A DNA stretch of 64,000 bases from Auricularia sp. M13 (lineage: Eukaryota > Basidiomycota > Agaricomycetes > Auriculariales > Auriculariaceae): NCBI GenBank assembly GCA_037042915.1, contig CM073200.1, positions 434,001 to 498,000 of the forward strand, read 5' to 3'. Under the pieces are notes generated by a model. That model was not told where the DNA came from, did not search any database, and worked only from the letters and a program-made list of their open reading frames with translations. This document shows positions 33,126 to 61,083 of this stretch, in pieces (positions within the stretch are counted from its first letter, which is position 1; each line of letters starts with the position of its first letter). Position numbers and translations under genes: made by a program.

Positions 33126-33841
33126 TGTTAAGCCTGCTGTGCCTTGGGGGTTTGGTTGCAAGGATAGTCGAACGTCCGGGCGCAGAGAACACTCGAACGA
33201 ACAACTAGAGCCTTCGGTGCGTTATTGAGCACACCGGCTACGTCGAGTAGCACGACCGAAGGGACCGCGAGCAGCAGAGGACTCAGACGAGTAAGTCGGG
33301 CGAGGGAAGAACCCAGAGGCGAAGTCGAGAGAGGGAGAGATAGAGTGTGCGAGGGGCACGACTATGTCGATTTCGTAACTGGGGAGCTAGATACAAAGTC
33401 GAGGGTCTTTTATACCTGGGGAGATGATCCGATGTACTCGGAGTGTATCCTAGAGACGAAGGAGAGGGGCCTCAGATCAATAGAGATCGTCGTCATCGGC
33501 CGATAGGATGAGTAAGAGCGAGTGGGTAAGGTATCGGGGGATCGGGCGAATGACGAGAGGCGAATGACTAAGACGAGTGGAGCGAACCGGATATGAACAC
33601 TATCGATACAGTAGGGACAAGGCGAGTTAGGTGGATGTATGCGAGTAAGGAGAGAAGCTAGAGAAGTGAGGGAGAGGTCTAGAGATAGAGGACGATGAGG
33701 AGAACATATCCCGAGCATATGAACACGAGGGGAGATAAGCCGGGTATTCGGGAGCTTGACCGAGTTGACCGAGTGACGTAGAATGACGCCGAGTGATGCC
33801 GAGAGCACGTGAGGTCCGCGGACCGGGGCACGGGCGTAACA
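33126..33841 (-). repeat. Gypsy-1 3' LTR, 716 bases
   Basis: Runs TGTTAAG...GTAACA on the plus strand. It carries a minus-strand TATA box, TATAAAAG, at 33407-33414, in the right direction for the element's own transcript. Matches 41011-41726. Confidence 0.93.
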
Positions 33842-33890
33842 GTATCCCCCCTTTACGTCCTGAGCCCACGAAGGACTGCAGCAACGCAAG

Positions 33891-35275
33891 GTGAATACGA
33901 AAAATGAGATAGCACGCACTCGAGTCCGAATGGGGCCAAAAGATCGGGTCGGGTCGGAACGGGTCGGACGCAGATTAAAAGTGGTTGGGTCGGGAGTTGA
34001 ATCGTCGAACCACTCTTGTCTTCTGCCCGCCGCCCACCATGCCGCGATACGAATCGCTCGAGGACGTCGCCGCGCGCACGACCGCAAGACCGTCGGCGCC
34101 GTCATGAGGTCGCTCGAGGACGACCCGACGATGGAGGCGCTGATCGCAGCGCACGAGGACGCGGCGGACGCTCGGCGGCCTGCAGCAAGAGGCCGTCGAC
34201 GAGGAGGACCTCGACGCGATCGAGGCGTTCAGCGCGCGCAGGCGCCAGGCGAAGGCCGAGCTGCGCCTGGCGGCGCAGCGACGCTCGGGATGCTGGCCGA
34301 GCGCGTGGCCAAGATCGCGGCGGACGCGGGCGCCAAGGCGACGAAGAGCCAGGCGTCGCCGGCGAAGGCGCCGACCACGAGCACGAAGGCGCCGGCGAAG
34401 GACGCGAGGGAGACCGAGTCGCCGCCGAAGAGGCGGAAGGCCATGGAGGTATGGGTCGAGCTCCCGCGATTGCGGGACGTTGCTAAGGTGCGCTTATTTT
34501 GCAGGTCGAGAGCGCGAAGACGACTCAGGCGCCGCGCAAGGTCGCGCCGAAACCCGCGCCGGTCGCGGTCGCTCGCTCGCCGTCGCTCGGGGCGGGCGAG
34601 ACGCTCGAGGACGACGACGAGGTCGAGGAGCTCGCGAGCCCGGTGGCGCCGGCCGCGAAGCCCAAGCCCAAGCCCAAGCCGCGCGCGGGCGGCAAGTTCA
34701 CGGATAGGTGGCCGGAGGTGCCGTACGGGACGCGGTTCCCGAGCCAGGTGAGTTTTTTGGTCGTTCGTGTTTTGCTCGCCAGGACTGACGACGAGTAGTG
34801 CGAGGCCTGCGTCAAGCGCGGCGGCCAGTGCGTTCGAGCACACCGCTCGAACACGTGCACCGCGTGCAACCAGAGCCGCGGCAAGTGCACGCACTCGGGC
34901 AAGCCCTTCGTGCCGCGCGGCGAGAAGAGGGCGGCGTCGCCGAGTGCGTCGCCCGAGCGCCCCAAGAAGGTGCGGATCGTCGAGGGGACGACGCTGGGGA
35001 CGCGGGCGGCCGAGGATCGCGCGAAGACGGCCGAGCACCGCAGGGTCGTGGAGAACCACGCCCTGTGGACGAACAATTCGGTCCACAACATCGAGCGGAT
35101 GTTGTACCGGATGCTGCAGTGGCAAGCGCAGCAGTTCGGCCAGTCGATCGACGATTCGATCGACAATCCGTTTTCGAGCGAGGAGGAAGAGGAGGCCGAG
35201 GAGGAGGTCGAGGAGGAGTCCGAGGAAGAGGACGAGGAAGCGGTCGAGGAAGCGACCGAGGACGCGGACGAGTAG
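33891..35275 (+). CDS. Gypsy-1 antisense accessory region with Zn2Cys6-like cysteines
   Basis: It lies between the end of pol and the 3' LTR and reads opposite to gag-pol. Three open stretches are separated by short gaps with GT...AG ends. The first two are rich in Lys, Ala and Pro. The third begins with six cysteines spaced C-x2-C-x6-C-x8-C-x2-C-x6-C (near 34800-34890), the spacing of the fungal Zn(II)2Cys6 cluster though without its usual basic residues. Helical sequence follows, then a long Glu/Asp tail ending at 35275. A region of the same plan occurs in Gypsy-2. Function unknown; DNA binding is an inference from spacing. Start not fixed. Confidence is for the region being a real accessory gene. 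Confidence 0.6.
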
Positions 35276-35395
35276 GCGATAGGATAGAGTAGTAGCGGGT
35301 GCGACCAAAGTCGCCCAAAATGTAATAAATGGCTGTTTCTTGGAATCGAGTAAAAAGCGAGTGAGCGAAGAAATAGCGAGTGAAAAAGCGAGTGC

Positions 35396-38300
35396 TTAGA
35401 TGTTTTCGAATTTCTTGAGGATCTGCTGGAATTCTTGATAACTACCGGGAGCGCTGGGATTTGCAGCATAGAAGTCTTGAACTGCTTCCTGCGCGTGTTC
35501 GAGATTTTCGGAGCCCATCTCGGTGGTCTCGGGGTCGTCGGGAGTGCCGATGTGACCGATCCAGCGAATGCGAAAACGAAGGCGCGAGTGACGATGGCGA
35601 TTGTCGATGCGTACGCTGAGTACTTCGAGCTCGTACTCTTGCTCGCCGTCGACGACGACGGGCGGAGGAGGTTCTTGACGTTGACCGGGGAACGCTTCTC
35701 GAGGGTGGGGTTCGAGTTGCGAGACGTGAAAGACCGGGTGTACGCGAGCGAGGTAGTCGGGTAGGCTGAGGGTGAACGATTGCGAGCTAGGTTGATCGAC
35801 GATCGGGAACGGGCCTAGGTAGCGATCGGCGAGTTTGCGAGTGGGCTGCGTCGTCTTGATGTGTTCCGAGAGGACGTAGGCCATGTCGCCGACCTTGAAG
35901 TCAGGCGGGGGAGTGCGTCGAGCATTCGCAGATGCAGTGTAACGTTTCTGAGCGGCAGCGATCTGCTCCTTCAGGACGTCCTGCAGTTCGTGGATGTCGA
36001 CAGCGAAGTCGCGGGCGCGAGCAGAGGCAACGTCGCGCTCGGGGTAGACGGAGATGTTCGGGTGAAAACCCTTGTTGGCGAAGAAAGGCGAGACACCAGT
36101 CGAGTCGTTCGGGGTGTTGTTGTACGTGAACTCGGCGAGAGGGAGTAGCTCGGACCAGTTGTCCTGCTCGTAGTTGCAGTAGAGACGGAGGTACTGCTCG
36201 AGCGTCTGGTTCGTGCGTTCGACTTGACCGTTCGCCTCCGGGTGGTGACCCGAGGTGAAGTGCATGGTCATGTTGAGGAGCGAGCCGAGTGCGCGAAAGA
36301 AGCGGGAGACGAATTCGGAGCCGCGGTCGGTAGAGACGTGCGAGGGAGCGCCATGTTTAGCGAAGACGTGGATGAGGAAGAGACGCGCGAGTTCTTCGGA
36401 GGTGATCTTGCCCTTGGTCGGGACGAAGATACCCTGCTTCGAGAGGCGATCAATAATGACGAGGATCGCGGTGTAACCGTTGGACTCAGGGAGTTGTTCG
36501 ATGAAGTCCATCGAGATCGAGTCCCAGTTGCGAAGCGGAATCGGGAGGGGTTGAAGTCGACCGTACGGCTTGTGTCGTCGAGGTTTGCTGCGCCCACAGG
36601 TGACGCATGCCTGGACGTAGGTACGAATCGAGTCGCGCAGGTCGGGCCAGTAGTACTCGCGGGCGACCATCTTGAGTGTCTTGTTCTGACCCGGATGGCC
36701 AGCGAGCGGGTGATCGTGCTTTTCGCGAAGGATACGAAGGCGACAATCGAGAGCGTTCGGTACGTAGATCCTGCCCTTGAACAGCAAGAATCCATCGTCC
36801 GAGGCCGACCAGTTGATCGCGTCATCGGTGCCGAGTTTCGAGCGAATGTCGAGAGCGAGTTCGTCCGAGTCGTACGAGGCGCGAATGTCATCCCGAATGG
36901 ACTGAGTGTCCATGATCGTGGCTGCGCGAAGGAAAGTCTCTTCAGCATACGTCGCGCGAAGGGAAGCGGCGAACTGTTCGAAGTAAAAACAGGTCGGAAG
37001 TTCTGCGGGTTTGCGCTGGCGTAGCCACCATCCCCCTTTTGAGATAGACGTCGTGGCGGCGAGTGAGAGCATCGGGTTTGCCGCCGAGTCGACCGGGTCG
37101 AAAGCGAATGAGGAGGTTGAAGGTAGAAAGGTACTCGGACCAGCGAGCTTGCCGACGAGTGAGCATCTTCGTGGTAGAGAAATACTCGAGGTTCTTGTGG
37201 TCCGTGACGACGTCTATTGGGGTCTCGGCCCCTTCGAGGTAGTGTCGCCATAGCTCGAACGCCTCCTCGAATATCGCGAGTAGCTCCTTGTCGTGCGTGT
37301 CGTAGTTGAGCTCGGTGGGAGTGAGCGTGCGCGAATGGAAAGCGACGGGGTGAACAGAGCCGTCCGGGAGGACGTGCGAGAAGATCGCCGCGATCGCGTA
37401 GTCGGAAGCGTCAGTCTCGACGACGCGAGGAAGAGCGGGATCGAAGTGGTGAAGGACGGGAGCGCAAGTGAACGCCTTCTTGAGCTCGTTGAACGCAGCG
37501 AGGCATTGCGGAGTGAAGTTCCACGTTGCGGTCTTTCGAGTGAGACGAGTGAGCGGGACGACGATATCGGAGTAGTCGTAGATGAATCGTCGATAGAAGT
37601 TCGCGAAGCCGAGGAACGACTGGATGTCGCGAACGTTGCGAGGAACGGGCCACTCGAGGAGGGTGGCAATCTTCTTCGGGTCCATGCTGATGCCCTCGGG
37701 GCTGATGATGTACCCGAGGTACTCGATGGTGTTAGCATGGAACTCGCACTTCTCGGGCTTACAGAAGAGGTCATTCTCCCGTAGCCGTCGAAGGACCTCT
37801 CGAACGTGTTCCTCATGCTTCGAGGGATCGTCCGAGTAGATGAGGATGTCGTCGAGGTAGACGGTGACCGTGACGTCGAGGAGGTCGGAGAAGATGTCGT
37901 TCATGAAGCGCTGGAAAGCGGCTGGAGCGTTCGTGAGACCGAAAGGCATGACGAGATACTCGTAGGTGCCGTAGCGCGTTCGAAAGGCAGTCTTCCACTC
38001 GTCGCCGGCCGCGATGCGAACGTTGCTGTATCCGACACGAAGATCGAGCTTGGTGAACTTCTTGGCGGTGCGAAGGCGGTCGAGCGTGGACGAGATGAGC
38101 GGAAGCGGGTACTTGTCCTTCCGAGTGATCTTGTTGAGCCCACGATAATCGACGCATAGGCGAAGAGAACCGTCGGCCTTCTTGACGAAGAGAACCGGGC
38201 GCCACCCGGGGACGACGAAGAGCGAATGTGTCCTTTGCTGAGGTTATCCTGAATGTACTCCCGAAGCGCGCGAGTTGCTCGGGCTCGGAGAGCGAGTAGA

Positions 38301-39111
38301 TCGGACCGGATGGGAGAGGCTTGCCTTCTTCCATGTCGATCTTGAGATCGTACGGCCGATGTTCAGGGAGTCGATTCGAGGCCTCCTTTGAGAAGACGTC
38401 GAGGAACTCGTGATAACACTCGGGGATGCCTTCGCCGGTTTCCGAGGCCGGGTTGGCAGACGCAGAGCGAGCGGGCACCGATGGATCTCGAATGTAGATG
38501 GCCGAGACCATCGAGCCGCGAAGTCGACGAGAGGTGTCGAAGGCTGCGGCGCCGATGATCTTGATGTCGACGCGAGCAGCGGCCGCGCGAAGGGCGGTTT
38601 CGTCCATCGGCGGTTCGGGAGGCAGAGTACGTGGCGCGGGAGGAGGTGACGACGGAGTCGGAGGATCCGAGTCGAGCGAGAACCCAGGGACGAAACCCGA
38701 GGGATCCGAGGGCGAGACACGAGTGGGGAAAGAGATGCGGTGATGGAACCAGTCAATCCTAGGATTGTAGCGGGCCAACCAGCGGTATCCCAGCACTGCA
38801 GAGCAAGTCGGATCTAGAGTGGTGAGGAGGAAGTTGATGATCATCGAAGTTCCGCAAGGGAAGCGGACGGGAAGCGACACGTATTTGGAGATAACACCGC
38901 GATAGGAGCCGTCGAAGAGCCGAAGGCGTAGCGGTTGATCGAGAGACTTTTGAGGGAGTCGAAGACTCTCGGCGAACTGAGTATCGAGGAACTGATCTTC
39001 GGAGCCGGAGTCGACGAGTGTGCGAAAGGATGGGACAGCGTCGGAGGAAAGGACGACGATGAGAGCGTCTTGATCGGTGAGCGCGGCAGCGTTCAACCGA
39101 GTGTAAGGCAT
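35396..39111 (-). pseudogene. Gypsy-1 pol (protease to chromodomain)
   Basis: Parts in order from the right: aspartic protease (TLVDSGSEDQFLD), reverse transcriptase with the [11 protein letters not shown] box, RNase H ([13 protein letters not shown]), integrase with an HHCC-type zinc finger (DHPLAGHPGQNKT, CVTCGRSK) and the DDE core, then a chromodomain near the C-terminus (RIRWIGH). Family: Ty3/Gypsy chromovirus. Looks broken in a few places. Confidence 0.88.
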
Positions 39112-39158
39112 CTTGGGCTTGACGCAGTTGGCCCTAGATGCCCGTGGGGAACTGCCCG

Positions 39159-39482
39159 TTAGTTTTTCGCTTCCGCCGGGGCAGAAGCGGCGGCGCCCGA
39201 GGGAGCGGGAGCCGGCGTCGAGGAAGTCGCGGGTTGAGCCTTAGCGGCGCGACCCTTCGACTCGCGATTGTGAGCGGCCTTGCGGCACTCGGACGCGGTG
39301 TGGCCGGCATGGCCACAGTAGAGGCAGAGGTTGTTATCGAGGCGACGGCGTCGCTCGGCGTCGTTGAGCTTGCCGTTCGAGTTGAGGTTCTTCGCGACGT
39401 CGTCCTTCGACTTGGTCGTGGTCTTCGAAGATGAGCAGGCCGAGGTCGAGGACTGACCCCTCGAGTTCGAGTGGTTGTTCGA

Positions 39483-39513
<31 letters not shown>

Positions 39514-40978
39514 GAGCGCGCGTTGGACTTGGTGTTCGATCGGGAGCCCGATTGAGGCGTCGCGGTCGAGGTGGTCTTCTGCGCTTTACGGGGTTCGTTC
39601 GCGTGCTCGAGAGCTTGCTCGTCCTTATCGATCCAGTAGTTGGCGTCGATGCTAAGAGCGAGCGCAGCGAGTGGCGTCAGAGAAGCCGGGCGTTGAGCTA
39701 CTTGAGCAGCGAAGACAGATTTGATGCGGCGAGGTAGAATTGCGAGGCGAGTGCAGCGTCGTCCCAGCCGAGCAGTTTGGCGTATTCGTCGAACTGGAGC
39801 TTGTAGCGGGCGACCTTGCCGTTGTCGGCCATTTGCAGTCGTCGAATCTTGACTTCGGCGCGTTCGCGTTCGTTCGTGACGCCGAAGGTGATCGTGAGTT
39901 CGTTCTTGAATTCGTTCCAGTCTTCGAGGAACTCGTAACCGGGAGGCGGATTCGGGACGAGAGGAACGTAGCCGCCCCACCATTCCTTCGCCCGACCCGA
40001 GAGATAGGTCGCGGTGAAGAGAATCTTCTCGCGGGACGTCTGGTACTTCCGAGGGTTGGCGAGGAAGTAGGTTTCGCAGTCGATGAGGAATCCGCGAAGT
40101 TTGTTGGCGTTTTCGCCGTCGAATTTGTCGGGTTTGGCGGCGTCGATGCGAGAACCGCTGTCGCGGTCGACGAAGTAGACACGAGGGACGTTGTCGTGTT
40201 GATCGTGGAATTGTCGTTCGCGATCGACGTCCGAGTCGTAGCCGTCCGACGGAGGGTCAAAGGGAGGTCCCGGGGGACCAGGAGGATCGTTACCGCCACC
40301 ACCGCCTCCACCGCCGCCACCTCCGGGAGGAGGGTTCGGAGGATGCGAGCCGTGCGAGTGGTGCGAGTGGTGCGAGTGGTGCGACGAGGGCGAGGGAGCA
40401 CCTCGATGACCACCACCGCCGCCGCCGCCTCCGCCGCCTCCGCCTCCACCGCCGCCACCTCCGCCGCCTCCTCCGCCACCCCCGCCGCCACGCCGGGGCG
40501 TGTTAGGGGTGCCGGATGGGAAGAAGCCGCGGAACGATGAGGAGTGCTGCGAAAAGCGAGGAGTCGAGCGAGAGCCGGTGTACGGAACTAGCGCGAGAGG
40601 GTGTCGAGAGCCGAGCGAGTGAGTCGAGGGATGCGAAGGCGATCGCGTCGTGCGACTTGAGGGAGGGTAGGAACCGCTCGGGTCCGCGCGTAGTGTGGAC
40701 TGGGCCGGCGAGAAACGCGAGGTGTGAAGCGAGCCGGAGAGAGTGTGTTGCGAGAGGATTTCGTCATCATCGTTCGGCGGTTGCGAGTGCCGAGATGATC
40801 CGAAGCGGCTAGTGCCCGACATCGAGACTGATGGCGAAGGCGTAGCCGGCTGAGGAGGTTGTTGGTCGCGAAGACGAGCCTGACGACGGGCTTCGCGAAG
40901 GATAGCGTCGGGGGAGTCGAGTAGAGGATGAGGTTCTTCCTGGTTTCTTCTGAGATTCTGTCGAGTCCCAAAGGCCAT
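39159..40978 (-). pseudogene. Gypsy-1 gag
   Basis: Capsid-type protein: an N-terminal disordered part with long Gly and His tracts (the plus-strand ccgccgcc repeats at 40280-40495), a gag domain around WWGGYVPL, and a CCHC zinc knuckle, C-x2-C-x4-H-x4-C (CLYCGHAGHTASEC). Starts about 35 bases inside the 5' LTR. Broken in about one place. Confidence 0.85.
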
Positions 40979-41010
40979 ACAACTCGAGCGGAGCTCGAGT
41001 TACGAAATAC

Positions 41011-41726
41011 TGTTAAGCCTGCTGTGCCTTGGGGGTTTGGTTGCAAGGATAGTCGAACGTCCGGGCGCAGAGAACACTCGAACGAACAACTAGAGCCTTC
41101 GGTGCGTTATTGAGCACACCGGCTACGTCGAGTAGCACGACCGAAGGGACCGCGAGCAGCAGAGGACTCAGACGAGTAAGTCGGGCGAGGGAAGAACCCA
41201 GAGGCGAAGTCGAGAGAGGGAGAGATAGAGTGTGCGAGGGGCACGACTATGTCGATTTCGTAACTGGGGAGCTAGATACAAAGTCGAGGGTCTTTTATAC
41301 CTGGGGAGATGATCCGATGTACTCGGAGTGTATCCTAGAGACGAAGGAGAGGGGCCTCAGATCAATAGAGATCGTCGTCATCGGCCGATAGGATGAGTAA
41401 GAGCGAGTGGGTAAGGTATCGGGGGATCGGGCGAATGACGAGAGGCGAATGACTAAGACGAGTGGAGCGAACCGGATATGAACACTATCGATACAGTAGG
41501 GACAAGGCGAGTTAGGTGGATGTATGCGAGTAAGGAGAGAAGCTAGAGAAGTGAGGGAGAGGTCTAGAGATAGAGGACGATGAGGAGAACATATCCCGAG
41601 CATATGAACACGAGGGGAGATAAGCCGGGTATTCGGGAGCTTGACCGAGTTGACCGAGTGACGTAGAATGACGCCGAGTGATGCCGAGAGCACGTGAGGT
41701 CCGCGGACCGGGGCACGGGCGTAACA
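41011..41726 (-). repeat. Gypsy-1 5' LTR, 716 bases
   Basis: The same as the LTR at 33126-33841 as far as I compared. Minus-strand TATAAAAG at 41292-41299. Confidence 0.93.
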
Positions 41727-42457: not shown

Positions 42458-42871
42458 TGTAAGCTACGGAAACTGTTAGGTCTTAGGTAGCTTGCGTAAA
42501 TAGAGTCTTTCGCTTTCGGTTTAGCTAAAGCTCGTGTCGTGAGTTGCTCAAGTTCTCCAATTGCAAAAGAGCTGCCCTAAATGGGCCAGCAGAGAAGTCC
42601 TTAAATACATCTGAGAATCCAACGAGTCATTTACCTAATCACTATCTACTGAGTCAGAGGTGAGTCTCTCCAAGTCACACTGAGGTTGGTGAGTCGGTGA
42701 ATGACTGCTGAATGAGTCTCAGGTGCTATTTCCGGTTCTCAAGCGAATTACAAGGTGTTTCAACGTAGGGTAAGTCAATTAAAAGGTGAATGACTTGTCT
42801 GCCGCTGCGGGACGAGCCCGAGAGCGGTCAGATGCTGACGCGGGCGGTCGAGTCACGCGGCGCGCATGACA
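42458..42871 (-). repeat. Gypsy-3 3' LTR, 414 bases
   Basis: Matches 61084-61497 with at least two single-base differences. Confidence 0.92.
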
Positions 42872-42907
42872 CACGCCCTCCCGGCCAGCAAGCTGCTGGA
42901 CGAAAGC

Positions 42908-45900: not shown

Positions 45901-46166
45901 CTGAGTCTTCCGGCTCGGCTATGAGCTCGCCGGGCGTTCTGACGGTTCCAGGCTCGTCCTCTTGGTAGAGTCTGGAAAGCCCATCGGCGAGAACGTTGTC
46001 CACACCTGGAATATACTCGATGGTGAAATCAAACTCGTTCAGGACGTGCAGCCAACGCATTTGCCGTTGGGACAATTCCTTCTGTTTCATAAAGTGGATT
46101 AACGCTTTATGATCTGTGCAGATTCGGAACTTCACACCATGCAACATGGGTCGAAACCTTTTGAGA
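42908..46166 (-). pseudogene. Gypsy-3 pol, part 3' of the Gypsy-2 insertion
   Basis: It starts within RNase H, continues through a long acidic linker, then the integrase HHCC finger (HSILAHLG, CHTCRTSK), catalytic core motifs (IGIDFVGPLP, HPQTDGMTERANRT) and a chromodomain-like segment (FIFYVKWND). After that comes an extension of nearly 300 residues with a charged coiled-coil-like part and one hydrophobic segment (LMFCIMLLVLHVVGG) near 43340, ending at 42908. The extension is not part of the usual chromovirus pol. Confidence 0.87.
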
Positions 46167-46171
46167 GACTC

Positions 46172-46775
46172 TGTTACGATCGTGCCCTCTCGGATCAAGG
46201 GGAGATCCGCAGAGCCCGCGTCGGAACTAAAAGGCGGACACGGCGGACCACAGTGCGTTATTGAACACACCGGCACACGCGAGTGAAGGTCAGGGCGGAA
46301 GTCGGAGAACGGGCGGAACTCAACAAGCGGAGCAAGTGAGCTCCGATAGCGGAGTCCGTCAATCGGGTTGGGACTTGAGGACGAGAGCGAGTCTAGCGGA
46401 TTGCGGAAGTGAGAGGATCGAGTTTGATTTCGAAACTGAGGTATGGTACAAGTAGACGGGAGCTATTTATACTAGAGCGGGATAGAGAGCGGAACAGAGA
46501 CACATCAGTCGGAACAGGATCTAGAATATTCCTATGACGCATGTGTGCTGCGGAAGTGACGTAGTGCCTACGTGGAACTGACGTGGCGTAGAATGAGAGA
46601 GAACGAGATAGAGGGAGAGAATGAGATAGAACAAGATAGAAGCGGAAATCGGAACAGGCGGAGATCACGGAGAGCGGAACGGATATACAATCGGAGATCA
46701 CGGATTACGGAGCGGAAATAAAGCGGATATCAGATCGGAGGCAAACGGAGGCAAACTGGATGCATGGGCGTAACA
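46172..46775 (-). repeat. Gypsy-2 3' LTR, 604 bases
   Basis: Minus-strand TATA box TATAAATA at 46464-46471. Matches 54271-54874. Confidence 0.93.
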
Positions 46776-46984
46776 GTATCCCCCCTTTTAGGACCTGAGC
46801 CCTCGAAGGTCGGAATTCCGCTGGCGGATTTTGTTTGGCGGAAATCGGAATTCGAAGTGAATTTGCTGGGTCGAGAAAGTGGGATTGAGTTTGGCCCGAA
46901 TTATTTTGGTCGCTTTGGTCGCCCAAGTATATAATGCGACGGTCGGACTTTGGAGTGGAAAACAACTCTTGTCCTTTGACCATC

Positions 46985-48331
46985 ATGTCGAGGATGATCG
47001 AGACTCGTCCCGAGGACGCGTGGTTCGACGAGTCGACACGTCTCCAGGCCGCGGGCCACGCCGCCGAGATCTTCCTTCTCAAGAAGGCCGGCGTCAGGCG
47101 GGCGGAAAACGAGGTCGACCAGGCGGCCTTGGAGGATTTCGTCACGCGCGAGTATTACCAGACGGGCGCCACCCGCTTCGAGGAGCTGGTGTCGGATCTG
47201 CAGGTGCAGGTCCTTCGTCGGAACTCGGCGGAGAAGGTTTTGGAGCAGATCGTCGTGTCAGACAAGGACTCCGCGGCCGTGGTGCGCTTCAAGGCGGAGG
47301 AGCGGAAGATCGCGGAGGATACGCTCCGCGACGTCAAGGGACTCCTGTCGGAGTACATGGAGGACCTCGACAAGATTGTCAGGTTGGTGCGCAAGGATTG
47401 GGAGGAGCACGTGAGTCGGATTTCGGAATCTTGAGTGGTGGTAAACTGATTTTGCGAATAGTTGCCCAAGTTCCGCGCCGACTACGCGGCCGCGCAGGCG
47501 GAGATTGCGGCGGAAGCGGAGCGGAAGAAGGCGGAGGAGGAGCAGGGGAGCCCGGCGGAGGACGCGGGCGAGACTCTTGAGGGCGACAAGCCCGACATCG
47601 AGCCGCAGGCCGGCGCGGCGGAAGAGGAGGAGGCCCTTGGGGCGAAGGGCGAGCCTTTCGTAAGTAGCGTCGGCTTTCGGATTTCCGCGTCGGATTTGAC
47701 ACCGGAGTAGGCGACCAAGTGCTCGCGTTGCGCTCAACGCGACATCGAGTGTGTGCGGCGGATCACGAATTCGTCGCGCACCACCAAGAGCTGTTACGCC
47801 TGCATCAAGGGCAAAAAGGACTGCTCGCACAACCCGGGCAAAAAGTCGAAGGCGGTCGTGGTGGCGGAAAAGGGCGGAGCAGCGAACGCTGCTCCGAAGC
47901 GGAAGAGGAAGACGGTGAGTGCGGAGGAGGTTACGTCGGACGACGAGGTGGAGATCGTCGAGACGACGAAGGGTGCGAGGGCGGGTCCGGCGGCGGCTCA
48001 GGCGGCGGGCCCTAACTTGGTGGAGGTGCTCCAGTCGCTCACGACGGCCAACCGGTGCGAGGCGGACAACATGGCGGGCGTCGCGGCGGCTTTGGCGAGG
48101 ATGGAGCCGTTGGTGAGGAGGATCGCGGATGCGATGGAGCGTCAGGCGGATGCGTTGGAGGTCCGCAACGCGATTGCGACAGGCGGACCGGCGGAGGTGG
48201 ACGACGAGGGCATACGCGTCATCTCCAGGGAGCGGTCAAAATCCGCTCCGCTGGGAACGAAGCGTTCTCGCCCCGAGTCCGGCCCAAGCGGACCTTTGCC
48301 CAAGAAACCTCGTCCTGACGCGAAGAAATGA
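46985..48331 (+). CDS. Gypsy-2 antisense accessory gene with Zn2Cys6-like cysteines
   Basis: It reads opposite to gag-pol and sits tail to tail with pol, starting about 210 bases from the 3' LTR. Three open stretches are separated by two gaps of about 50 bases with clear intron ends (GTGAGT...TAG and GTAAGT...TAG). The first is helical and charged, the second Ala/Glu-rich. The third opens with six cysteines spaced C-x2-C-x6-C-x12-C-x2-C-x6-C, followed by a basic KRKRK stretch, a helical part and a basic end that could be a nuclear signal. Total about 414 codons. Gypsy-1 has the same plan with little sequence identity, which argues for long-term selection. Function unknown; a DNA-binding or regulatory role is inferred. 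Confidence 0.72.
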
Positions 48332-48648
48332 TCTCGGAAAACGACTTGACAACATGTAAAATGTAGATAGCGAAATTTGTTGTCGGAAATGGAAGCGAAG
48401 TTAATGGCGGAAAATGAGGTCGGAAAACGAAGAATGACTTGACAATGAGTGACTGTTGATAACGCGTGAGTTTGTCGGGAGTGACTGTGTCGGATTTTGC
48501 TGTCGGAAGTGGATGTCGGGATAGGAGTGATTTGACTTGAAAGAATGTGGTCGGTATTGTCGGAAATCGAATGAGCGGACTTGAAGGTCGAATAGCGGAA
48601 ACGGGAGGCGGAAACGATGAGCGGAATTTAGGAGACGGAGGCGCGACT

Positions 48649-51600
48649 TCAGCGCTGGATGTACGAGAGGAACATTTCGTACGACCCAGGCTGATTGGGG
48701 TACTGCTCGTGGAACTCGCGGATTAGGTCGGGAGAATGTTCACATTCGGTCGCGGGAAGTTCTTGGACTTCGTCGTCTTCGCCGTCATAGCCTTTCCACT
48801 TGACAGTGTACAGGAGCTTGACTCGGCGGCGATTATCGATGCGAGACGAGAGGATTTCCGACACCTCGTACTCTGTTTGTCCGTCGACAATGACTGGCGG
48901 AGGCGGATCTTGATGCCGACCCTCAATCTCATCGGGGAAGAATGGCTCGAGCTGCGAGATGTGGAAGACGGGATGAATGGCGCGGAGATAGTCGGGGAAC
49001 TCGATGGTGTAGGACTGCGGACCAGGTTGAGCGATGACCTTGAAAGGGCCAAGGAAGCGTTCGGCGAGTTTCTTGGTCGGACGAGTAGTCCGGATGTGTT
49101 CCGCCAGGACGTAAGTCTTGTCTCCGACCTTGAGGTTCGGAGGCGGAGCTCGTCGGGCATTGGCGGAAGCGGAATAGCGGGACTGCGCATGCGCGATCTG
49201 CTCTTTGAGGGCGGATTGCACTTCGTGGATGTCGACAGCGTAGTCACGCGCACGAGCGGAAGTGATGTCGCGTTCGGGGTACACCGTCAGGTTCGGATGA
49301 TGACCCTTGTTGGCGAAGAACGGAGAAATGCCCGTCGAGTCGTTGGGCGTGTTGTTGTAGGTGAACTCCGCTAGCGGAAGAAGCTCGGACCAGTTGGACT
49401 GCTGATAGTTGCAGTAGATGCGGAGATACTGCTCGAGAGTCTGATTGACGCGTTCAACTTGTCCGTTCGCCTCAGGATGATGTCCGGAGGTGAAGCGCAT
49501 CTTAATGTTGAGCAGAGTTCCGAGGGAGCGGAAGAAGCGAGAAACAAACTCAGAGCCGCGGTCGGAAGCGACGTGGGACGGGGCTCCGTGCTTGGAGAAG
49601 ACGTGCATAAGGAAAAGGCGGGCCAGCTCTTCGGAAGTGATTTCGTCCGTCGTCGGAATAAAGATGCCTTGCTTGGAGAGGCGGTCGACAATGACGAGGA
49701 TGGCGGTAAAGCCGTTGGATGCGGGGAGCTGTTCGATGAAGTCCATCGAGATGGCGTCCCAGGGACGGTGCGGAATAGGAAGCGGTTGAAGACGTCCGTA
49801 GGGCTTGTGACGACGAGGCTTGTTCCGTCCGCAATTGACGCAGGACTGGACGTATTTCCGAATGTAGATGCGGAGATCGGGCCAGTAGTATTCGCGGGAA
49901 ACGATCTTGAGAGTCTTGTTCTGGCCAGGATGTCCGGCAAGCGGATGATCGTGCTTGTCGCGGAGAATTCGGAGGCGGAGATTCGTCGAGTTCGGAACGT
50001 AGATGCGGTTCTTGTAGAGAAGGAACCCATCGTCGGATTTCGTCCAATCGCGTTTGTCGTCGGAACCCAGCTCAGAGATGACTTCTTGAGCGAGTTCGTC
50101 GGCGTCGTAGGCGGAGCGGATGTCGTTGTGGAGCGTCTCGGTGTCCATGAGAGCCGCAGCACGGAGGAAGACTTCCTCAGAGTAGGTAGCGCGTAAAGAA
50201 GCGGAAAGTTGGTCGGAAGTGAAAACAGGGCGGAAATTCTGCGGATTAGCACCGGCGTAGCCGCTATCCCCCCTTTTAAGATAGACGTCGTAACGGCGGG
50301 TTAGAGCATCGGGTTTCCCACCAAGACGACCGGGGCGGAAGCGGATTAGAAGGTTGAAAGCGGAAAGGAACTCCGACCAGCGGGCTTGGCGTCGGGTTAA
50401 CATCTTGGTAGTACTGAAATACTCCAAGTTCTTGTGATCGGTTACGACGTCTATTGGGACTTCAGCGCCTTCAAGGTAATGTCGCCAGATCTGGAAGGAC
50501 TCGAAGATGGCGAGAAGCTCCTTGTCGTGCGTGTCGTAGTTCAATTCCGTCGCCGTGAGCGTGCGGGAATGGAAAGCCACAGGGTGGACTGTTCCGTCCG
50601 GTAGGACGTGCGAGAAAATGGCGGCAATAGCGTAATCCGACGCGTCGGTTTCGACGACGCGCGGAAGAGTCGGATCGAAGTGGTGGAGAACGGGAGCCTT
50701 GGTGAAGGCGGATTTGAGCGTCTCGAAAGACAGTTTGCAGGCGGCGTCGAAGTTCCAGTGGGCGGATTTGCGGGTTAGACACGTAAGCGGAACAACGATG
50801 TCGGAATAGCCGTGCACAAAACAGCGGTAAAAGTTGGCGAAGCCGAGGAACGACTGGATGTCGCGAACGTTGCGCGGCTGAGGCCACTCGAGGATGGTGG
50901 TGACCTTCTTCGGATCCATGGAGATGCCGTCGGTTCCGATGATGTAGCCGAGGAACTCAATCTTTTCCGCGTGGAACTCGCACTTCTCCGGCTTGCAGTA
51001 GAGGTCGTGCTGGCGGAGTCGGCGGAGAACTTCGCGGACATGTTCTTCGTGCTTGGACTCGTCGTCGGAATAGATGAGGATGTCATCGAGGTAGACGACT
51101 ACGGTGACGTCGAGTAGGTCGGAAAAGATGTCGTTCATGAAACGTTGGAATGCGGCGGGAGCGTTGGTTAATCCGAAGGGCATGACGAGGTACTCGTAGG
51201 TTCCGTAGCGCGTGCGGAATGCGGTCTTCCACTCATCGCCGGCGGCGATGCGGACATTGGAATATCCGACGCGGAGATCAAGCTTGGTGAACTTCTTCGC
51301 GGTGCAGAGTCGATCCAACGTGGAGGAAATGAGCGGGAGCGGATACTTGTCTTTCCGCGTGATCTTGTTAAGTCCGCGGTAGTCGACGCAGAGGCGGAGG
51401 CTACCGTCAGCTTTCTTGACGAAGAGGACCGGAGCTCCGCCCGGTGACGAGCTAGAGCGGATATGGCCCTTGGAGAGATTCTCCTGAATGTACTCGCGGA
51501 GCGCGAGCTGCTCGGGCTCCGACAGAGAATAGATCGGACCAGAGGGGAGTGACTTGCCCTCCTCCATGTCGATCTTGAGGTCGTATGGGCGGTGTTCCGG

Positions 51601-52356
51601 CAGGCGGTTAGACGCCTCTTTGGAGAACACATCCAAGAAGTCGTGATAGGCTTCGGGAATGCCTTCTCCGCTCTCGGACGCCGGGTTGGCGGAGGCGGAC
51701 CGAGCGGAACTAAGCGGGTCTCGAATATAGATGGCGGAAACCATCGAGCCCCGCATGTGGCGGACATAGTCGAAGGCCGCCGCGCCAATAATCTTGATGT
51801 CGACTCGGGCGGCAGCGGCGCGGCGCAGTTTCGTCCATCGGAGGTGTGGGCGGAACAGTTGGCGGAGATGGGTCGGAAGGAGACGCGTAAAACGCGGAAC
51901 AGAGTCGCGACCGGAAGAGGATTCCGAGTCGTCCGCAGAGAACCCAGGAGCAAAGTCGTGGGTTGCCGTCGGAGAGATCCGCGTGTTGAACTCGATGCGG
52001 CCGTTAAACCAGTCAATCCGAGGATTGTAGCGGCGTAGCCAGCGGTGTCCTAACACGGCGGAACACGACGGGTCGAGCTTGGTAAGCAAGAAGTGGATGA
52101 TCATCGGGGTTCCGTTCGGAAAACGGACGGGTAGGGTCACAAAGTGGGTTATGAGCCCTCGAGAGGATCCGTCGAACAAGCGCAAGCGGAGCGGATGATC
52201 GAGCGGAAAGCGCGGAAGTTTGTATTGATCAGCAAAGCCAATGTCTAAGAACTGGTCTTCTGATCCAGAGTCAATGAGAGTGCGAAATGTCGGAACAGGG
52301 TCGGAAGAAAGGGGTATGATGAGTGCGTCTTGCTCGGTGAGTGCGGCGGCATTCAA
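48649..52356 (-). CDS. Gypsy-2 pol, one open frame of 1,235 codons
   Basis: Order: aspartic protease (TLIDSGSEDQFLD), reverse transcriptase with [11 protein letters not shown], RNase H ([13 protein letters not shown]), integrase with an HHCC finger (DHPLAGHPGQNKT, CVNCGRNK) and DDE core (HPEANGQVERVNQT), and a C-terminal chromodomain (YTVKWKGYDGE). Typical of chromoviruses, whose chromodomain is thought to steer insertion to marked chromatin. It is in a different frame from gag. Confidence 0.93.
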   Translation of the reverse strand: MNAAALTEQDALIIPLSSDPVPTFRTLIDSGSEDQFLDIGFADQYKLPRFPLDHPLRLRLFDGSSRGLITHFVTLPVRFPNGTPMIIHFLLTKLDPSCSAVLGHRWLRRYNPRIDWFNGRIEFNTRISPTATHDFAPGFSADDSESSSGRDSVPRFTRLLPTHLRQLFRPHLRWTKLRRAAAARVDIKIIGAAAFDYVRHMRGSMVSAIYIRDPLSSARSASANPASESGEGIPEAYHDFLDVFSKEASNRLPEHRPYDLKIDMEEGKSLPSGPIYSLSEPEQLALREYIQENLSKGHIRSSSSPGGAPVLFVKKADGSLRLCVDYRGLNKITRKDKYPLPLISSTLDRLCTAKKFTKLDLRVGYSNVRIAAGDEWKTAFRTRYGTYEYLVMPFGLTNAPAAFQRFMNDIFSDLLDVTVVVYLDDILIYSDDESKHEEHVREVLRRLRQHDLYCKPEKCEFHAEKIEFLGYIIGTDGISMDPKKVTTILEWPQPRNVRDIQSFLGFANFYRCFVHGYSDIVVPLTCLTRKSAHWNFDAACKLSFETLKSAFTKAPVLHHFDPTLPRVVETDASDYAIAAIFSHVLPDGTVHPVAFHSRTLTATELNYDTHDKELLAIFESFQIWRHYLEGAEVPIDVVTDHKNLEYFSTTKMLTRRQARWSEFLSAFNLLIRFRPGRLGGKPDALTRRYDVYLKRGDSGYAGANPQNFRPVFTSDQLSASLRATYSEEVFLRAAALMDTETLHNDIRSAYDADELAQEVISELGSDDKRDWTKSDDGFLLYKNRIYVPNSTNLRLRILRDKHDHPLAGHPGQNKTLKIVSREYYWPDLRIYIRKYVQSCVNCGRNKPRRHKPYGRLQPLPIPHRPWDAISMDFIEQLPASNGFTAILVIVDRLSKQGIFIPTTDEITSEELARLFLMHVFSKHGAPSHVASDRGSEFVSRFFRSLGTLLNIKMRFTSGHHPEANGQVERVNQTLEQYLRIYCNYQQSNWSELLPLAEFTYNNTPNDSTGISPFFANKGHHPNLTVYPERDITSARARDYAVDIHEVQSALKEQIAHAQSRYSASANARRAPPPNLKVGDKTYVLAEHIRTTRPTKKLAERFLGPFKVIAQPGPQSYTIEFPDYLRAIHPVFHISQLEPFFPDEIEGRHQDPPPPVIVDGQTEYEVSEILSSRIDNRRRVKLLYTVKWKGYDGEDDEVQELPATECEHSPDLIREFHEQYPNQPGSYEMFLSYIQR

Positions 52357-52421
52357 CCGAGTGAATTTACGTCTCTCGGAGTTGACGCAGTCCGGTCGAG
52401 AGACGGCGGCGGGACTGCCGT

Positions 52422-54239
52422 CTAGTTTCCCTGCTTGCCGCCCTCAGCAGAGGTCGGAGCAGCGGAAGCGGAAGGGGACGCGGAGGCGGAAGTCGCAGCA
52501 GCGCGGCCCTTGGTTTCGCGGTTGTGGGCCGCCTTGCGGCACTCGCTGGCCATGTGTCCAGATTTTCCGCAGTACATGCAGAGTTTCTCCTTTATGCGCC
52601 GTTGACGTTCCTCCTCGGTGAGGTTACCGGATTTGTTGAGTTTTCCGGTCAGGTCGGGGGCGGAGGACTTCTTGGAAGACGGCGCGTTGGAGGTTGAAGA
52701 AGCGGATTTCGTAGCGGAAGACGAAGACTTGTGCGAAGAGGATTGGGTTGAAGCGGAGGACGACGTAGACGGCTTGGGCTTCTTGTGCTGATGCGAAGGG
52801 TTCTTGTCCTTCTTGGTGTCGGAAGACGAGACGGACGTCGAGCTGTCGGCATTGCGTTTGATGGTGATACCGGCGTTCCGCTGGTTGCGGTCGATACTGA
52901 GAGCCCAGGCGCGGAGGACCGTGAGATCCGTCGGGCACGGAGCAATCTGGTCGCCCATGACTTTCTTGATGCGGTTCGGAAGTCCGGCGTAGAATTTGTC
53001 GGCAAGGACGAGTTGATCGTAACCCGACGCGCGGGCAAGAGGCTCGAAGTCGATGGCGTACTGGGCGACCTTGTGGTCTTCCGCCATCTTGAGTTTTTCC
53101 AGCTTCTCCACGGCTTCGTCGCGCGGGAAGCGGACTCCGAAGACTGCGTTGAGCTCAACCTTGAATTCCGGCCATGAGCGGAGGAACGACGGCGGATTTC
53201 CGTCGAGGAGGAGCTCAATGTACGCCTCGTACCAAGTCCGCGCTTTTCCGACGAGGTAAGACGCGGCGGTAACGATGCGGGCGTGATGCGACTCGTAAGT
53301 GGACGGGTCGCCGAGGAAGTAGTTCTCGCAGGAGGCAATCCATCCCCGGAGTTTGTCGGATTTGGTGCCGTCATACTCATCGGGGTCGCGAGTCTTGATT
53401 TTGCGGTGCGGACGATGGGCGGCAATGGCGTCTCTGTACATGTTGCGGAGACGTTCGCGGTCCACGTCCGAGTCGAAGTCGGGAGGGCCGCCAGGGGGGC
53501 CTGGAGGTCCGGGAGGTCCAGGAGGTCCGCCAGCTCCGCCGCCACCCGGCGGACCAGGAGGTCCGGGCGGAGGTGCGATACTTCCGCCAACAGAGTCGCT
53601 GGGATGCGGGTGCGGAGGTGAGCCCGAAGGCGTATGGTGACTGGAGTGGTAGCTGGAGTGGTGGCTGGAACCTGGAGGTCCGCCGCCGCCGCCTCCGCCA
53701 CCTCCGCCAGGTCCGCTACCGTGAGAGGAAGGCGGATTACTGGGGTGAGACGGAGGTCCGCGCGGGGCGGAATGGATGCAAGACGAATGGAGAGAGTGCG
53801 GATTGGCGTGGCAGAACGGATTGTAACAGCGCGGGTGTGGGACCGACGCTATGGAGGTTGCGGACGAGTCTCGGGACGGTGGCAGTTCAATGAACCATGG
53901 TCCGAGGTTTTCCTGCGACGGCGGCGGTGCGCGCGGCAGTGACGGGGTTGGGGTCTGCGAGCTCGGAGGTGCGGTCCCTGATCCCGGCCCGGGGTTCTCG
54001 GACCCTACGGGGTTGCCGAGGTCGTCGAAGTCGTCCGGGTGAATGGATGCTGATCCGAAAAGCGACATTGTCGGAAGTGGGGTTAGGGTGGAGAGTGTGG
54101 ATGTTGACGGAGTTGTCGGAACAGCTGGTTGCTGTCGGCGTGTGCGATTGGCTTCGCGGATGAGGCGGTCAGGCGAGTTGACTGGTTGCGCAAGTGATTG
54201 AGCGTTGTTTCGGATTTGACGTCGGGTGCCACTGGCCAT
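52422..54239 (-). CDS. Gypsy-2 gag, about 605 codons
   Basis: A disordered, Pro/Gly/Ser/His-rich N-terminal half, a gag capsid-type domain around ENYFLGDPSTYESH, a Ser-rich linker, and a zinc knuckle C-x2-C-x4-H-x4-C (CMYCGKSGHMASEC) near the end. The start is about 30 bases inside the 5' LTR. Confidence 0.9.
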   Translation of the reverse strand: MASGTRRQIRNNAQSLAQPVNSPDRLIREANRTRRQQPAVPTTPSTSTLSTLTPLPTMSLFGSASIHPDDFDDLGNPVGSENPGPGSGTAPPSSQTPTPSLPRAPPPSQENLGPWFIELPPSRDSSATSIASVPHPRCYNPFCHANPHSLHSSCIHSAPRGPPSHPSNPPSSHGSGPGGGGGGGGGGPPGSSHHSSYHSSHHTPSGSPPHPHPSDSVGGSIAPPPGPPGPPGGGGAGGPPGPPGPPGPPGGPPDFDSDVDRERLRNMYRDAIAAHRPHRKIKTRDPDEYDGTKSDKLRGWIASCENYFLGDPSTYESHHARIVTAASYLVGKARTWYEAYIELLLDGNPPSFLRSWPEFKVELNAVFGVRFPRDEAVEKLEKLKMAEDHKVAQYAIDFEPLARASGYDQLVLADKFYAGLPNRIKKVMGDQIAPCPTDLTVLRAWALSIDRNQRNAGITIKRNADSSTSVSSSDTKKDKNPSHQHKKPKPSTSSSASTQSSSHKSSSSATKSASSTSNAPSSKKSSAPDLTGKLNKSGNLTEEERQRRIKEKLCMYCGKSGHMASECRKAAHNRETKGRAAATSASASPSASAAPTSAEGGKQGN

Positions 54240-54270
54240 ACAACTCGAGAGTGCTCGAGTTTCGAAATAC

Positions 54271-54874
54271 TGTTACGATCGTGCCCTCTCGGATCAAGGG
54301 GAGATCCGCAGAGCCCGCGTCGGAACTAAAAGGCGGACACGGCGGACCACAGTGCGCTATTGAACACACCGGCACACGCGAGTGAAGGTCAGGGCGGAAG
54401 TCGGAGAACGGGCGGAACTCAACAAGCGGAGCAAGTGAGCTCCGATAGCGGAGTCCGTCAATCGGGTTGGGACTTGAGGACGAGAGCGAGTCTAGCGGAT
54501 TGCGGAAGTGAGAGGATCGAGTTTGATTTCGAAACTGAGGTATGGTACAAGTAGACGGGAGCTATTTATACTAGAGCGGGATAGAGAGCGGAACAGAGAC
54601 ACATCAGTCGGAACAGGATCTAGAATATTCCTATGACGCATGTGTGCTGCGGAAGTGACGTAGTGCCTACGTGGAACTGACGTGGCGTAGAATGAGAGAG
54701 AACGAGATAGAGGGAGAGAATGAGATAGAACAAGATAGAAGCGGAAATCGGAACAGGCGGAGATCACGGAGAGCGGAACGGATATACAATCGGAGATCAC
54801 GGATTACGGAGCGGAAATAAAGCGGATATCAGATCGGAGGCAAACGGAGGCAAACTGGATGCATGGGCGTAACA
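54271..54874 (-). repeat. Gypsy-2 5' LTR, 604 bases
   Basis: Differs from the other LTR at one site noticed (gcgcta versus gcgtta near 54357/46258). Minus-strand TATAAATA at 54563-54570. Confidence 0.93.
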
Positions 54875-54879
54875 GACTC

Positions 54880-61025: not shown

Positions 61026-61083
61026 ATTACTCGAGTAGGATTTAATTAATTGTAATTAGAGGGTGTATACGAACTCAAAAAGT

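What the first reader, a model, noticed from the sequence alone, without database searches (positions are those of the whole stretch)
46985..48331. Spliced, antisense Zn2Cys6-like gene in a chromovirus
Gypsy-2 carries, opposite to gag-pol and next to its 3' LTR, an uninterrupted three-part gene with clear intron ends and six cysteines in the spacing of a fungal binuclear zinc cluster, plus a basic KRKRK stretch. Ordinary chromoviruses have only gag and pol. A retroelement that encodes its own candidate transcription factor on the opposite strand could control LTR activity or silencing.
Basis: partly seen in the sequence, partly recalled or inferred. Interest (0 to 1): 0.8.

Follow-up and report, generated by a model that had tools for sequence, protein, structure and literature searches.

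The report
Retroelement's own antisense DNA-binding-like gene
A family of fungal jumping genes carries, on its opposite strand, a conserved gene for a zinc-cluster-like protein, and the two subfamilies examined are each filled with their own short repeated DNA word that this protein may recognise.

Summary
It is conserved: at least 50 copies of its cysteine exon lie in this 52-Mb genome, and 42 of the 43 found near a reverse transcriptase are antisense to it. Gypsy-1, a relative in the same window, has a homologue. Coding changes show purifying selection. Precedents are brtn of Botrytis Boty elements and plant Retand/Grande antisense ORFs, so this is a new variant of a known kind. PF00172 does not match; Zn2Cys6 kinship rests on cysteine spacing, a low-confidence model whose only five structural hits (none significant) are Gal4, Pho7 and Put3, and a weakly similar transposon protein that does match PF00172. 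New here: Gypsy-2 is saturated from LTR to LTR with [GT]CGGA (23/kb against 2.6-4.3/kb elsewhere), also at synonymous sites of gag and pol, whereas Gypsy-1 carries CGAGT/GCGAA; four control elements share no strong word between LTR and pol. Best reading: an element-encoded factor recognising its own family's words, comparable to VANC anti-silencing proteins of Arabidopsis VANDAL elements. Expression, splicing and binding are untested.

The parts
46172..54874 (-). Gypsy-2 chromovirus, whole element (gag-pol on - strand)
   Evidence: LTR pair, TSD GACTC both sides; domains
46172..46775 (.). 3' LTR of Gypsy-2, dense in [GT]CGGA words
54271..54874 (.). 5' LTR of Gypsy-2
46780..46789 (-). polypurine tract (AAAAGGGGGG on -) next to 3' LTR
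   Evidence: read; role inferred
46928..46935 (+). TATA-like TATATAAT, 57 nt before the ATG; candidate core promoter of the antisense gene, the same in 4 of 4 copies aligned
   Evidence: function inferred
46985..47410 (+). antisense gene exon 1
47411..47461 (+). intron 1, 51 nt, GT-AG (donor GT in 3 of 4 copies aligned; AT in copy C12)
47462..47659 (+). exon 2 (acidic linker)
47660..47710 (+). intron 2, 51 nt, GT-AG (4 of 4 copies); the last intron lies just before the cysteine cluster here, in Gypsy-1 and in the non-element homologue
47711..48331 (+). exon 3: six-cysteine cluster 47720-47824, KRKRK, predicted long helix, basic tail
48332..48648 (.). non-coding stretch between antisense gene and pol, CGGAA words
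48649..52443 (-). pol (RT, RNase H, integrase, chromodomain), open; [GT]CGGA words in excess of synonymous shuffles
52422..54272 (-). gag frame, open
33126..41726 (-). Gypsy-1, relative of Gypsy-2 (74.7% identical DNA over 3840 columns, mostly pol); LTRs 33126-33841 and 41011-41726 identical, TSD ATGTT; carries CGAGT/GCGAA words instead
34039..35275 (+). antisense gene of Gypsy-1: exon 1 34039-34448 (frameshifted in this copy), introns 34449-34504 and 34748-34798, exon 2 34505-34747, Zn exon 34799-35275

Best explanation
SHOWN (in sequence, one genome): this lineage of chromoviruses carries a conserved protein-coding gene on the strand opposite to gag-pol, between pol and the 3' LTR, coding for a protein with a six-cysteine cluster, a linker and a predicted long helix; both introns are predicted from GT-AG ends. 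SHOWN: each of the two subfamilies in the window is enriched along its length for its own short word, pol coding sequence included. INFERRED: the protein is a Zn2Cys6-type nuclear DNA-binding factor, made from its own promoter just inside the 3' LTR, that recognises those words and so marks DNA of its own family. It would open or activate the LTRs and counter host silencing in a family-specific way (as VANC does for VANDAL elements; like HBZ in place and splicing). Dense words over the whole body would let it coat the element; a different word in each subfamily would keep it off host genes and off rival elements. The antisense introns would survive retrotransposition because the sense genomic RNA cannot splice them.
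For: Copies: 4 of the Gypsy-2 type, 46 Gypsy-1-type Zn exons at E<1e-38, 3 of them with stops. Of 51 Zn places checked, 43 lie within 12 kb of an RT hit on the expected side; 42 of these 43 are antisense, 26 of 43 at 2385-2412 nt; 41 of 52 RT hits of at least 80% identity have one within 1-8 kb, against 1 of 32 more distant RT hits. dN/dS 0.20-0.32 in 6 of 6 Gypsy-2 pairs; 0.026-0.462 in the 47 of 66 Gypsy-1 exon-3 pairs printed. With substitutions moved only among sites of the same trinucleotide context, so few nonsynonymous changes occur in at most 20 of 2000 replicates in 13 of 13 pairs tested (all 6 Gypsy-2 pairs, 7 chosen Gypsy-1 pairs). Gypsy-1 and Gypsy-2 proteins: two-sequence BLASTP E 3e-10. 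Foldseek: 5 of 5 PDB hits of the Gypsy-2 model are Zn2Cys6 domains. Words: 23.1/kb in Gypsy-2 against 2.6-4.3/kb elsewhere in the window; pol 79 against 38.8 expected and gag 31 against 13.4, 0 of 500 synonymous shuffles each, with excess on the other strand too; Gypsy-1 pol lacks them and has CGAGT/GCGAA. Best word shared by LTR and pol: z 8.5 (Gypsy-2), 4.9 (Gypsy-1), 2.2-3.4 in 4 controls. In five LTR relatives (60-76% identical) the words stay numerous though most places change.
Against: No PF00172 match for 8 of 8 members scanned; Foldseek E-values of 0.54-3.5 are not significant, and the second model gives Gal4 only at E 9.9, behind an unrelated chain. C3-C4 spacing of 13 in Gypsy-2 is wide. 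Word and protein co-vary in only two subfamilies, and the Gypsy-1 words lack the CGG that Zn2Cys6 proteins usually read (recalled). Over all 1024 words the LTR-pol correlation is 0.28 and 0.22 for two Gypsy-2 copies but 0.11 for Gypsy-1, hardly better than a control (0.03-0.10). One LTR relative (L030, matched over 114 nt only) shows little excess: GCGGA 0, CGGAA 2. In the LTR the words lie almost all on one strand, which DNA binding does not need. The Gypsy-1 word GCGAA was chosen from pol itself, and in the Gypsy-1 gag piece the gene-strand excess is absent. 9 of 12 Gypsy-1 copies examined, the window copy with identical LTRs among them, and 2 of 4 Gypsy-2 copies lack a fully open spliced frame; copy C12 has also lost the intron-1 donor. 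No expression, binding or methylation data.
Confidence: 0.46

Rival explanations
1. The words act in RNA: the sense genomic RNA is full of UCCG words that the element's own Gag (or the antisense protein as an RNA-binding accessory factor) uses to pick its own RNA for packaging or export. The antisense gene is then a separate regulatory function.
For: In the LTR the words sit almost only on one strand (CGGAA 11 against 0 for its reverse complement, GCGGA 15 against 1); gag has a CCHC knuckle (by eye).
Against: In Gypsy-2 gag and pol both orientations exceed synonymous shuffles by about twofold, as double-strand recognition predicts (in Gypsy-1 pol only the gene-strand orientation does); four control gypsy elements, which must also package RNA, show no strong shared word.
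Confidence: 0.22
2. The antisense gene is real and nuclear but has another job (for example steering integration or binding host chromatin), and the words come from a family-specific mutation bias, such as errors of the element's own reverse transcriptase.
For: The words run through the whole Gypsy-2 element irrespective of function, stop at its ends, and are not kept at fixed places.
Against: The RT stretch of Gypsy-2 and of most Gypsy-1-type copies is 91-94% identical in protein, yet the words differ; a mutation bias would not easily make a five-base word twice as common as expected while the protein stays constant.
Confidence: 0.2
3. What matters is the antisense transcript: it pairs with the genomic RNA and feeds RNA silencing or self-limitation; the protein is incidental.
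For: The review PMC7264820 raises this for plant elements (passages read); sense and antisense RNAs would overlap over the whole gene. Many copies have broken frames.
Against: Fewer nonsynonymous changes than context-matched chance in 13 of 13 pairs; +21, +3 and +6 exon indels in copies C7 and C12; six cysteines kept in 12 of 12 Gypsy-1 and 3 of 4 Gypsy-2 copies.
Confidence: 0.06
4. Chance open frame in GC-rich DNA.
For: Long shadow frames exist on the other strand (325 aa at 47258-48235), and in exon 3 alone one minus frame that shares the wobble base scores almost as constrained as the gene frame.
Against: Homologues in about 50 copies and a non-element homologue with an intron at the same place, selection tests over all exons, a +1 indel of copy C7 that falls inside intron 2.
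Confidence: 0.02

Closest known systems
Boty / brtn of Botrytis cinerea (Zhao et al. 2011, Virology 417:248; paper not held, title and citations seen)
   Same: Fungal chromodomain gypsy element with an extra antisense gene between pol and the 3' LTR (passages of PMC7264820 and PMC4227169)
   Different: Ascomycete; no zinc cluster, introns or word array mentioned in the passages that I saw; BRTN sequence not at hand, so homology was not tested
Plant antisense aORFs: Retand TRP28, Grande gene23, RIRE2, PvRetro13 (PMC11963269, PMC7264820; passages read)
   Same: [quoted passage not shown] Grande gene23 is read from a promoter just upstream of it
   Different: TRP28 or SMC domains where any is known; Retand elements are not chromoviruses; 'intron' and 'zinc' have 0 occurrences in either main text
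HTLV-1 HBZ (recalled; an HTLV antisense promoter in the 3' LTR is mentioned in PMC7264820)
   Same: Spliced antisense gene read from the 3' LTR end, coding for a nuclear regulator
   Different: bZIP, not zinc cluster; a retrovirus of people
VANC of Arabidopsis VANDAL DNA transposons (PMC5735166, abstract and passages read)
   Same: TE-encoded protein and short motifs that pile up in its own family and differ between related families
   Different: DNA transposons; the motif lies in non-coding DNA, often as tandem repeats; binding and demethylation were shown by experiment
Fungal Zn2Cys6 transcription factors (PF00172; Gal4, Pho7, Put3)
   Same: Six-cysteine order, cluster-linker-long helix layout in the model, only structural hits
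   Different: No profile match; C3-C4 spacing 13 in Gypsy-2; carried by a retroelement

Membership tests
Antisense additional ORF between pol and 3' LTR (aORF-3R type) | Open frame antisense to gag-pol, between pol and 3' LTR | tested here: met
Antisense additional ORF between pol and 3' LTR (aORF-3R type) | Present in most copies of the family and conserved | tested here: met
   41 of 52 close RT hits have the Zn exon within 8 kb; dN/dS below 0.5 in the pairs printed
Zn2Cys6 binuclear cluster (PF00172) | Profile match over the curated cut-off | tested here: not met
   0 of 8 members at E up to 10 (HMMER's filters drop most weak hits); 2 of 8 match Copper-fist at best E 0.96. A transposon protein (L019) does match (21.4 bits, cut-off 21, best stretch 13 residues) and pairs with the Gypsy-2 cluster at two-sequence E 4e-4
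Zn2Cys6 binuclear cluster (PF00172) | C-x2-C-x6-C-x5-12-C-x2-C-x6-8-C (pattern recalled) | tested here: inconclusive
   Gypsy-1 x8 fits, Gypsy-2 x13 is one too wide
Zn2Cys6 binuclear cluster (PF00172) | Fold | tested here: inconclusive
   5 of 5 Foldseek hits are Zn2Cys6 domains but E 0.54-3.5; second model weaker, 1 of 2 hits; pdb_via not available
Zn2Cys6 binuclear cluster (PF00172) | Binds two zinc ions and DNA | not testable with these tools
   needs purified protein
VANC-like anti-silencing system | Family-specific short motif accumulated in the element | tested here: met
   (strong for Gypsy-2, weaker for Gypsy-1)
VANC-like anti-silencing system | Motif changes together with the protein | tested here: inconclusive
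   two subfamilies only: CGGA-type and CGA-type words
VANC-like anti-silencing system | Protein binds the motif and removes silencing | not testable with these tools
   no binding or methylation data
brtn | Sequence homology to BRTN | not tested
   sequence not at hand in the collections used
HBZ-like antisense bZIP | bZIP domain | tested here: not met
   no bZIP match in Pfam for exon 1 or exon 3; exon 2 was not scanned

The most novel reading that the evidence does not exclude
A retrotransposon family that writes a family-specific short DNA word over its whole body, including synonymous sites of gag and pol, as a self-recognition code for a DNA-binding protein that it encodes itself on its antisense strand: a self/non-self (anti-silencing) code of a fungal LTR element, analogous to but independent of VANDAL/VANC.
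Probability: 0.37. Interest if true: 0.88.

Novelty: new variant of a known kind. Interest (0 to 1): 0.7.

Why it matters
How transposons escape host silencing without waking every other transposon is, as far as I know, open in fungi. Here the candidate protein and its candidate targets sit in one element, the targets can be counted in sequence, and two subfamilies carry different words, so the idea can be tested by simple binding assays. It also suggests that synonymous sites of a retroelement polyprotein are under a constraint unrelated to the protein, and gives a solo non-element homologue that may be the source or the domesticated offspring of the gene.

Tried and rejected
Direct PF00172 membership: no hit. 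PDB by sequence: only chance-level hits, best E 0.19. Viral contigs: 63 pattern matches, 0 confirmed. No other fungal genome was within reach (the genome has no relatives held), and the prokaryote and metagenome collections were not searched, so conservation is shown within one genome only. Antisense genes in other gypsy lineages: 3.1-3.2-kb stretches beyond the RT of 11 distant elements have no such cysteine pattern; they were placed by distance from the RT and may miss a longer element. Three weak hits were read: C1:9395615 is a homologue (L055); C5:1398380 aligns at single-locus E 5e-7 but lacks the cysteine pairs; C1:2230985 gave no alignment. Fixed spacing of CGGA pairs (Gal4-like dimer sites): no clear peak by eye. 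Conservation of word positions between LTR relatives: 9 of 21, 6 of 25, 4 of 21, 8 of 24 and 8 of 25 kept, against 0.40, 0.28, 0.33, 0.25 and 0.25 for other 4-mers, so places are hardly favoured. Rows dropped: one search used 84 of the 151 RT places counted (the best-matching ones) and 51 of the 59 Zn rows (second fragments and weak hits left out). Controls: 4 elements, with LTRs shorter (284-414 nt) than those of Gypsy-2 and Gypsy-1; 284-nt pieces of the Gypsy-2 LTR still reach z 3.7-7.9.

Full report
OBSERVATION. The three-exon frame is there as described: exons 46985-47410, 47462-47659, 47711-48331, all in phase 0, two 51-nt GT-AG introns, 414 aa. It lies in a complete chromovirus (46172-54874, TSD GACTC, LTRs one mismatch apart) opposite to open gag and pol frames; pol carries RT, RNase H, integrase and a chromodomain. 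The gene begins 209 nt inside the 3' LTR; a TATATAAT stands 57 nt before its ATG and a polypurine tract next to the LTR (read). The six-cysteine pattern occurs in the window only here and in Gypsy-1; 0 of 60 shuffled windows and 0 of 2000 shuffles of the gene contain it.

A FAMILY TRAIT. The own genome (52 Mb, 14 contigs) holds four copies of the Gypsy-2 gene and 46 Gypsy-1-type Zn exons at E below 1e-38, three of them with in-frame stops (counts are lower bounds). Of 51 Zn places compared with 84 RT places, 43 have an RT within 12 kb on the expected side; 42 of the 43 are antisense to it, 26 of them at 2385-2412 nt. 41 of 52 RT hits of at least 80% identity have such a gene within 1-8 kb. Of the other 11, four have one 14-39 kb away in the expected direction (one of these, on C7, is split by a nested insertion). 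Only 1 of 32 more distant RT hits (45-58% identity) has one within 8 kb, and its Zn place (C11:1577137) is 95% identical to the Gypsy-1 type. In the three control elements whose LTR pairs I found, pol homology ends 165 nt before the 3' LTR (L047, L023) or the open frame ends at the LTR (L042).

SELECTION. dN/dS is 0.20-0.32 for six of six pairs of Gypsy-2 copies and 0.026-0.462 for the 47 of 66 Gypsy-1 exon-3 pairs printed. With substitutions moved only among sites of the same trinucleotide context, the observed number of nonsynonymous changes or fewer is reached in 0, 6, 0, 20, 0 and 1 of 2000 replicates (Gypsy-2 pairs) and 0, 0, 0, 4, 1, 0 and 2 of 2000 (seven chosen Gypsy-1 pairs). Between Gypsy-2 copies, exon indels of +21, +3 and +6 keep frame, intron 2 has a +1 in copy C7, and the non-coding stretch has +4, +2, +1 and -1. 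The exceptions are a 1-bp deletion in exon 1 of C12 and a 347-bp plus a 1-bp insertion in C11. C12 has also lost the intron-1 donor; the window copy and C7 are open throughout. Against: in exon 3 alone one minus frame that shares the wobble base scores nearly as low as the gene frame (51, 106 and 34 against 7, 30 and 36 of 2000), for copy C11 slightly lower. For the window copy against C12, pol has 70 changes in 3795 nt (42 synonymous) and the gene 71 in about 1240 nt: the gene has diverged more than pol.

ANATOMY OF THE PROTEIN. The Gypsy-1 and Gypsy-2 proteins match at two-sequence BLASTP E 3e-10, with the last intron just before the cluster in both. In 12 of 12 Gypsy-1 copies aligned, both introns keep GT and AG and all six cysteines are kept (L041 has a stop inside the cluster). 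In Gypsy-1 the phase-0 intron abuts the first cysteine codon. A gene with no close copy in the genome, C1:9395168-9396008, has the same cluster, an acidic tail and an intron at exactly that place. Its match to the Gypsy-1 protein is E 1.6e-7 when only that locus is searched, but 0.05 and 0.004 in the two genome-wide searches. Gypsy-2 element DNA and pol find nothing in C1:9390600-9401000, and the flanks share no repeat. The element captured a host gene or the host kept an element gene; direction unknown. AlphaFold2 on exon 3 (8 sequences): mean pLDDT 61.7, cluster 66-80, linker mostly under 50, helix 103-157 at 78-95; the only five Foldseek hits in the PDB are Pho7 (twice), Gal4 (twice) and Put3, E 0.54-3.5. 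The Gypsy-1 model is weaker: two hits, one of them Gal4 at E 9.9. PF00172 does not match. A Zn protein of a Tnp2-like DNA transposon in the same genome does match it (21.4 bits against a cut-off of 21) and pairs with the Gypsy-2 cluster at two-sequence E 4e-4. I therefore say 'Zn2Cys6-like', not 'a member of PF00172'.

WORD ARRAYS. Looking for CGG-type sites, I found that Gypsy-2 is saturated with [GT]CGGA: 23.1 per kb on the antisense-gene strand (6.0 on the other) against 2.6-4.3 in the rest of the window, with edges at the LTR ends; the C12 copy has 21.9. LTR: GCGGA 15 (expected 2.0), CGGAA 11 (1.6), with reverse complements 1 and 0. The words were defined on the LTR; tested on pol against synonymous-codon shuffles that keep protein and codon usage, they number 79 against 38.8 on one strand and 22 against 10.5 on the other; in gag 31 against 13.4 and 17 against 8.6; 0 of 500 shuffles each. 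The homologous pol pieces of Gypsy-1 have no excess (7 against 9.2 and 7 against 12.3) but are rich in CGAGT/GCGAA on the gene strand (18 against 6.4, 25 against 10.8; 0 of 500), not on the other (8 against 6.7, 5 against 3.8); the body of Gypsy-1 has 13.4 per kb against 3.0-4.1 elsewhere. GCGAA was picked from pol itself; CGAGT came from the LTR and on its own gives 8 against 4.1 and 12 against 4.4. In the Gypsy-1 gag piece the gene-strand excess is absent (9 against 7.4), the other strand has 11 against 4.7. The best word shared by LTR and pol reaches z 8.5 in Gypsy-2, 4.9 in Gypsy-1 and 2.2-3.4 in four control elements; the overall LTR-pol correlation is 0.28 and 0.22 in two Gypsy-2 copies, but 0.11 in Gypsy-1 against 0.03-0.10 in the controls. 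In five LTR relatives at 60-76% identity, 4-9 of the 21-25 aligned CGGA words are kept, about as often as other 4-mers or slightly more, yet the total stays at 13-26: density is maintained while places turn over. A sixth, remote relative (L030) shows little excess.

HOW IT MOST LIKELY WORKS. Shown: gene, conservation, arrays. Inferred: transcription from a promoter just inside the 3' LTR, splicing, zinc binding, recognition of the words. A family-specific DNA-binding protein whose targets cover the whole element suits anti-silencing or self-activation. In Arabidopsis, VANC proteins bind short motifs that pile up in their own VANDAL family and change between families, and induce loss of methylation throughout the elements (PMC5735166, abstract and passages). 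Excess in both orientations in Gypsy-2 gag and pol favours double-stranded DNA; the one-sidedness in the LTR, and in Gypsy-1 pol, leaves room for an RNA-level role (first rival). Broken or missing frames in 9 of 12 Gypsy-1 copies (in two of the nine exon 1 is not in the stretch fetched) suggest action in trans or partial decay; this is not explained.

KNOWN OR NEW. [quoted passage not shown] original not held), maize Grande, rice RIRE2, Silene Retand (PMC11963269: 97% of clusters with TRP28, predicted to bind DNA). Term searches inside PMC3248453 (LTR retrotransposons in fungi), PMC3411680 and PMC10799480 found 'antisense' in none of them. Library searches returned no paper, and the listings of 55 (8 of 8 listed) and 78 (12 of 55 listed) show no zinc-cluster antisense gene in a basidiomycete gypsy by title or abstract start. 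Hence: new variant of a known kind, with an unusual and testable word array.

Noticed in passing
C7:3354324-3363939 (L019, L053, L018) and 56 matching stretches in the genome: A DNA transposon with a Tnp2-like frame (PF02992 E 5e-4, below its cut-off) and 351-bp identical ends carries a second Zn-cluster gene family (passes the PF00172 cut-off) on the same strand; related copies form a regular array at about 3.46-kb spacing at C3:2501583-2512502. Whether all copies sit in such transposons was not checked.
   Followed up: partly
C1:9395168-9396008 (L055 569-1408): Two-exon homologue without close copies and without Gypsy-2 pol or element DNA around it, about 25 kb from a contig end and near an nSTAND/NB-ARC-type gene; intron exactly before the first cluster cysteine.
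   Followed up: partly
window 34039-34448: The Gypsy-1 copy with identical LTRs has a frameshifted exon 1, and part of this damage is shared with other copies, yet exon 3 stays constrained; why a broken gene still spread is unexplained.
   Followed up: partly
window 42458-61497: Gypsy-2 sits inside another gypsy element (414-bp repeats 42458-42871 and 61084-61497, 99.5% identical) and splits its pol.
   Followed up: no
window 2583-6089 and 8740-12173: Direct repeat of about 3.5 kb at 75% identity.
   Followed up: no
C12:163297 element (L023), pol: A control gypsy pol has its own mild excess of CTCGG/TCGGC over synonymous shuffles (z about 5) that its LTR hardly shares (TCGGC z 2.0).
   Followed up: no
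C4:3058403-3058747 and C11:2277500-2287490 (L028, L027): Older, broken relatives of the Gypsy-2 type whose antisense gene pieces are only 27-38% identical while the LTRs are about 60-75% identical and still rich in CGGA.
   Followed up: partly
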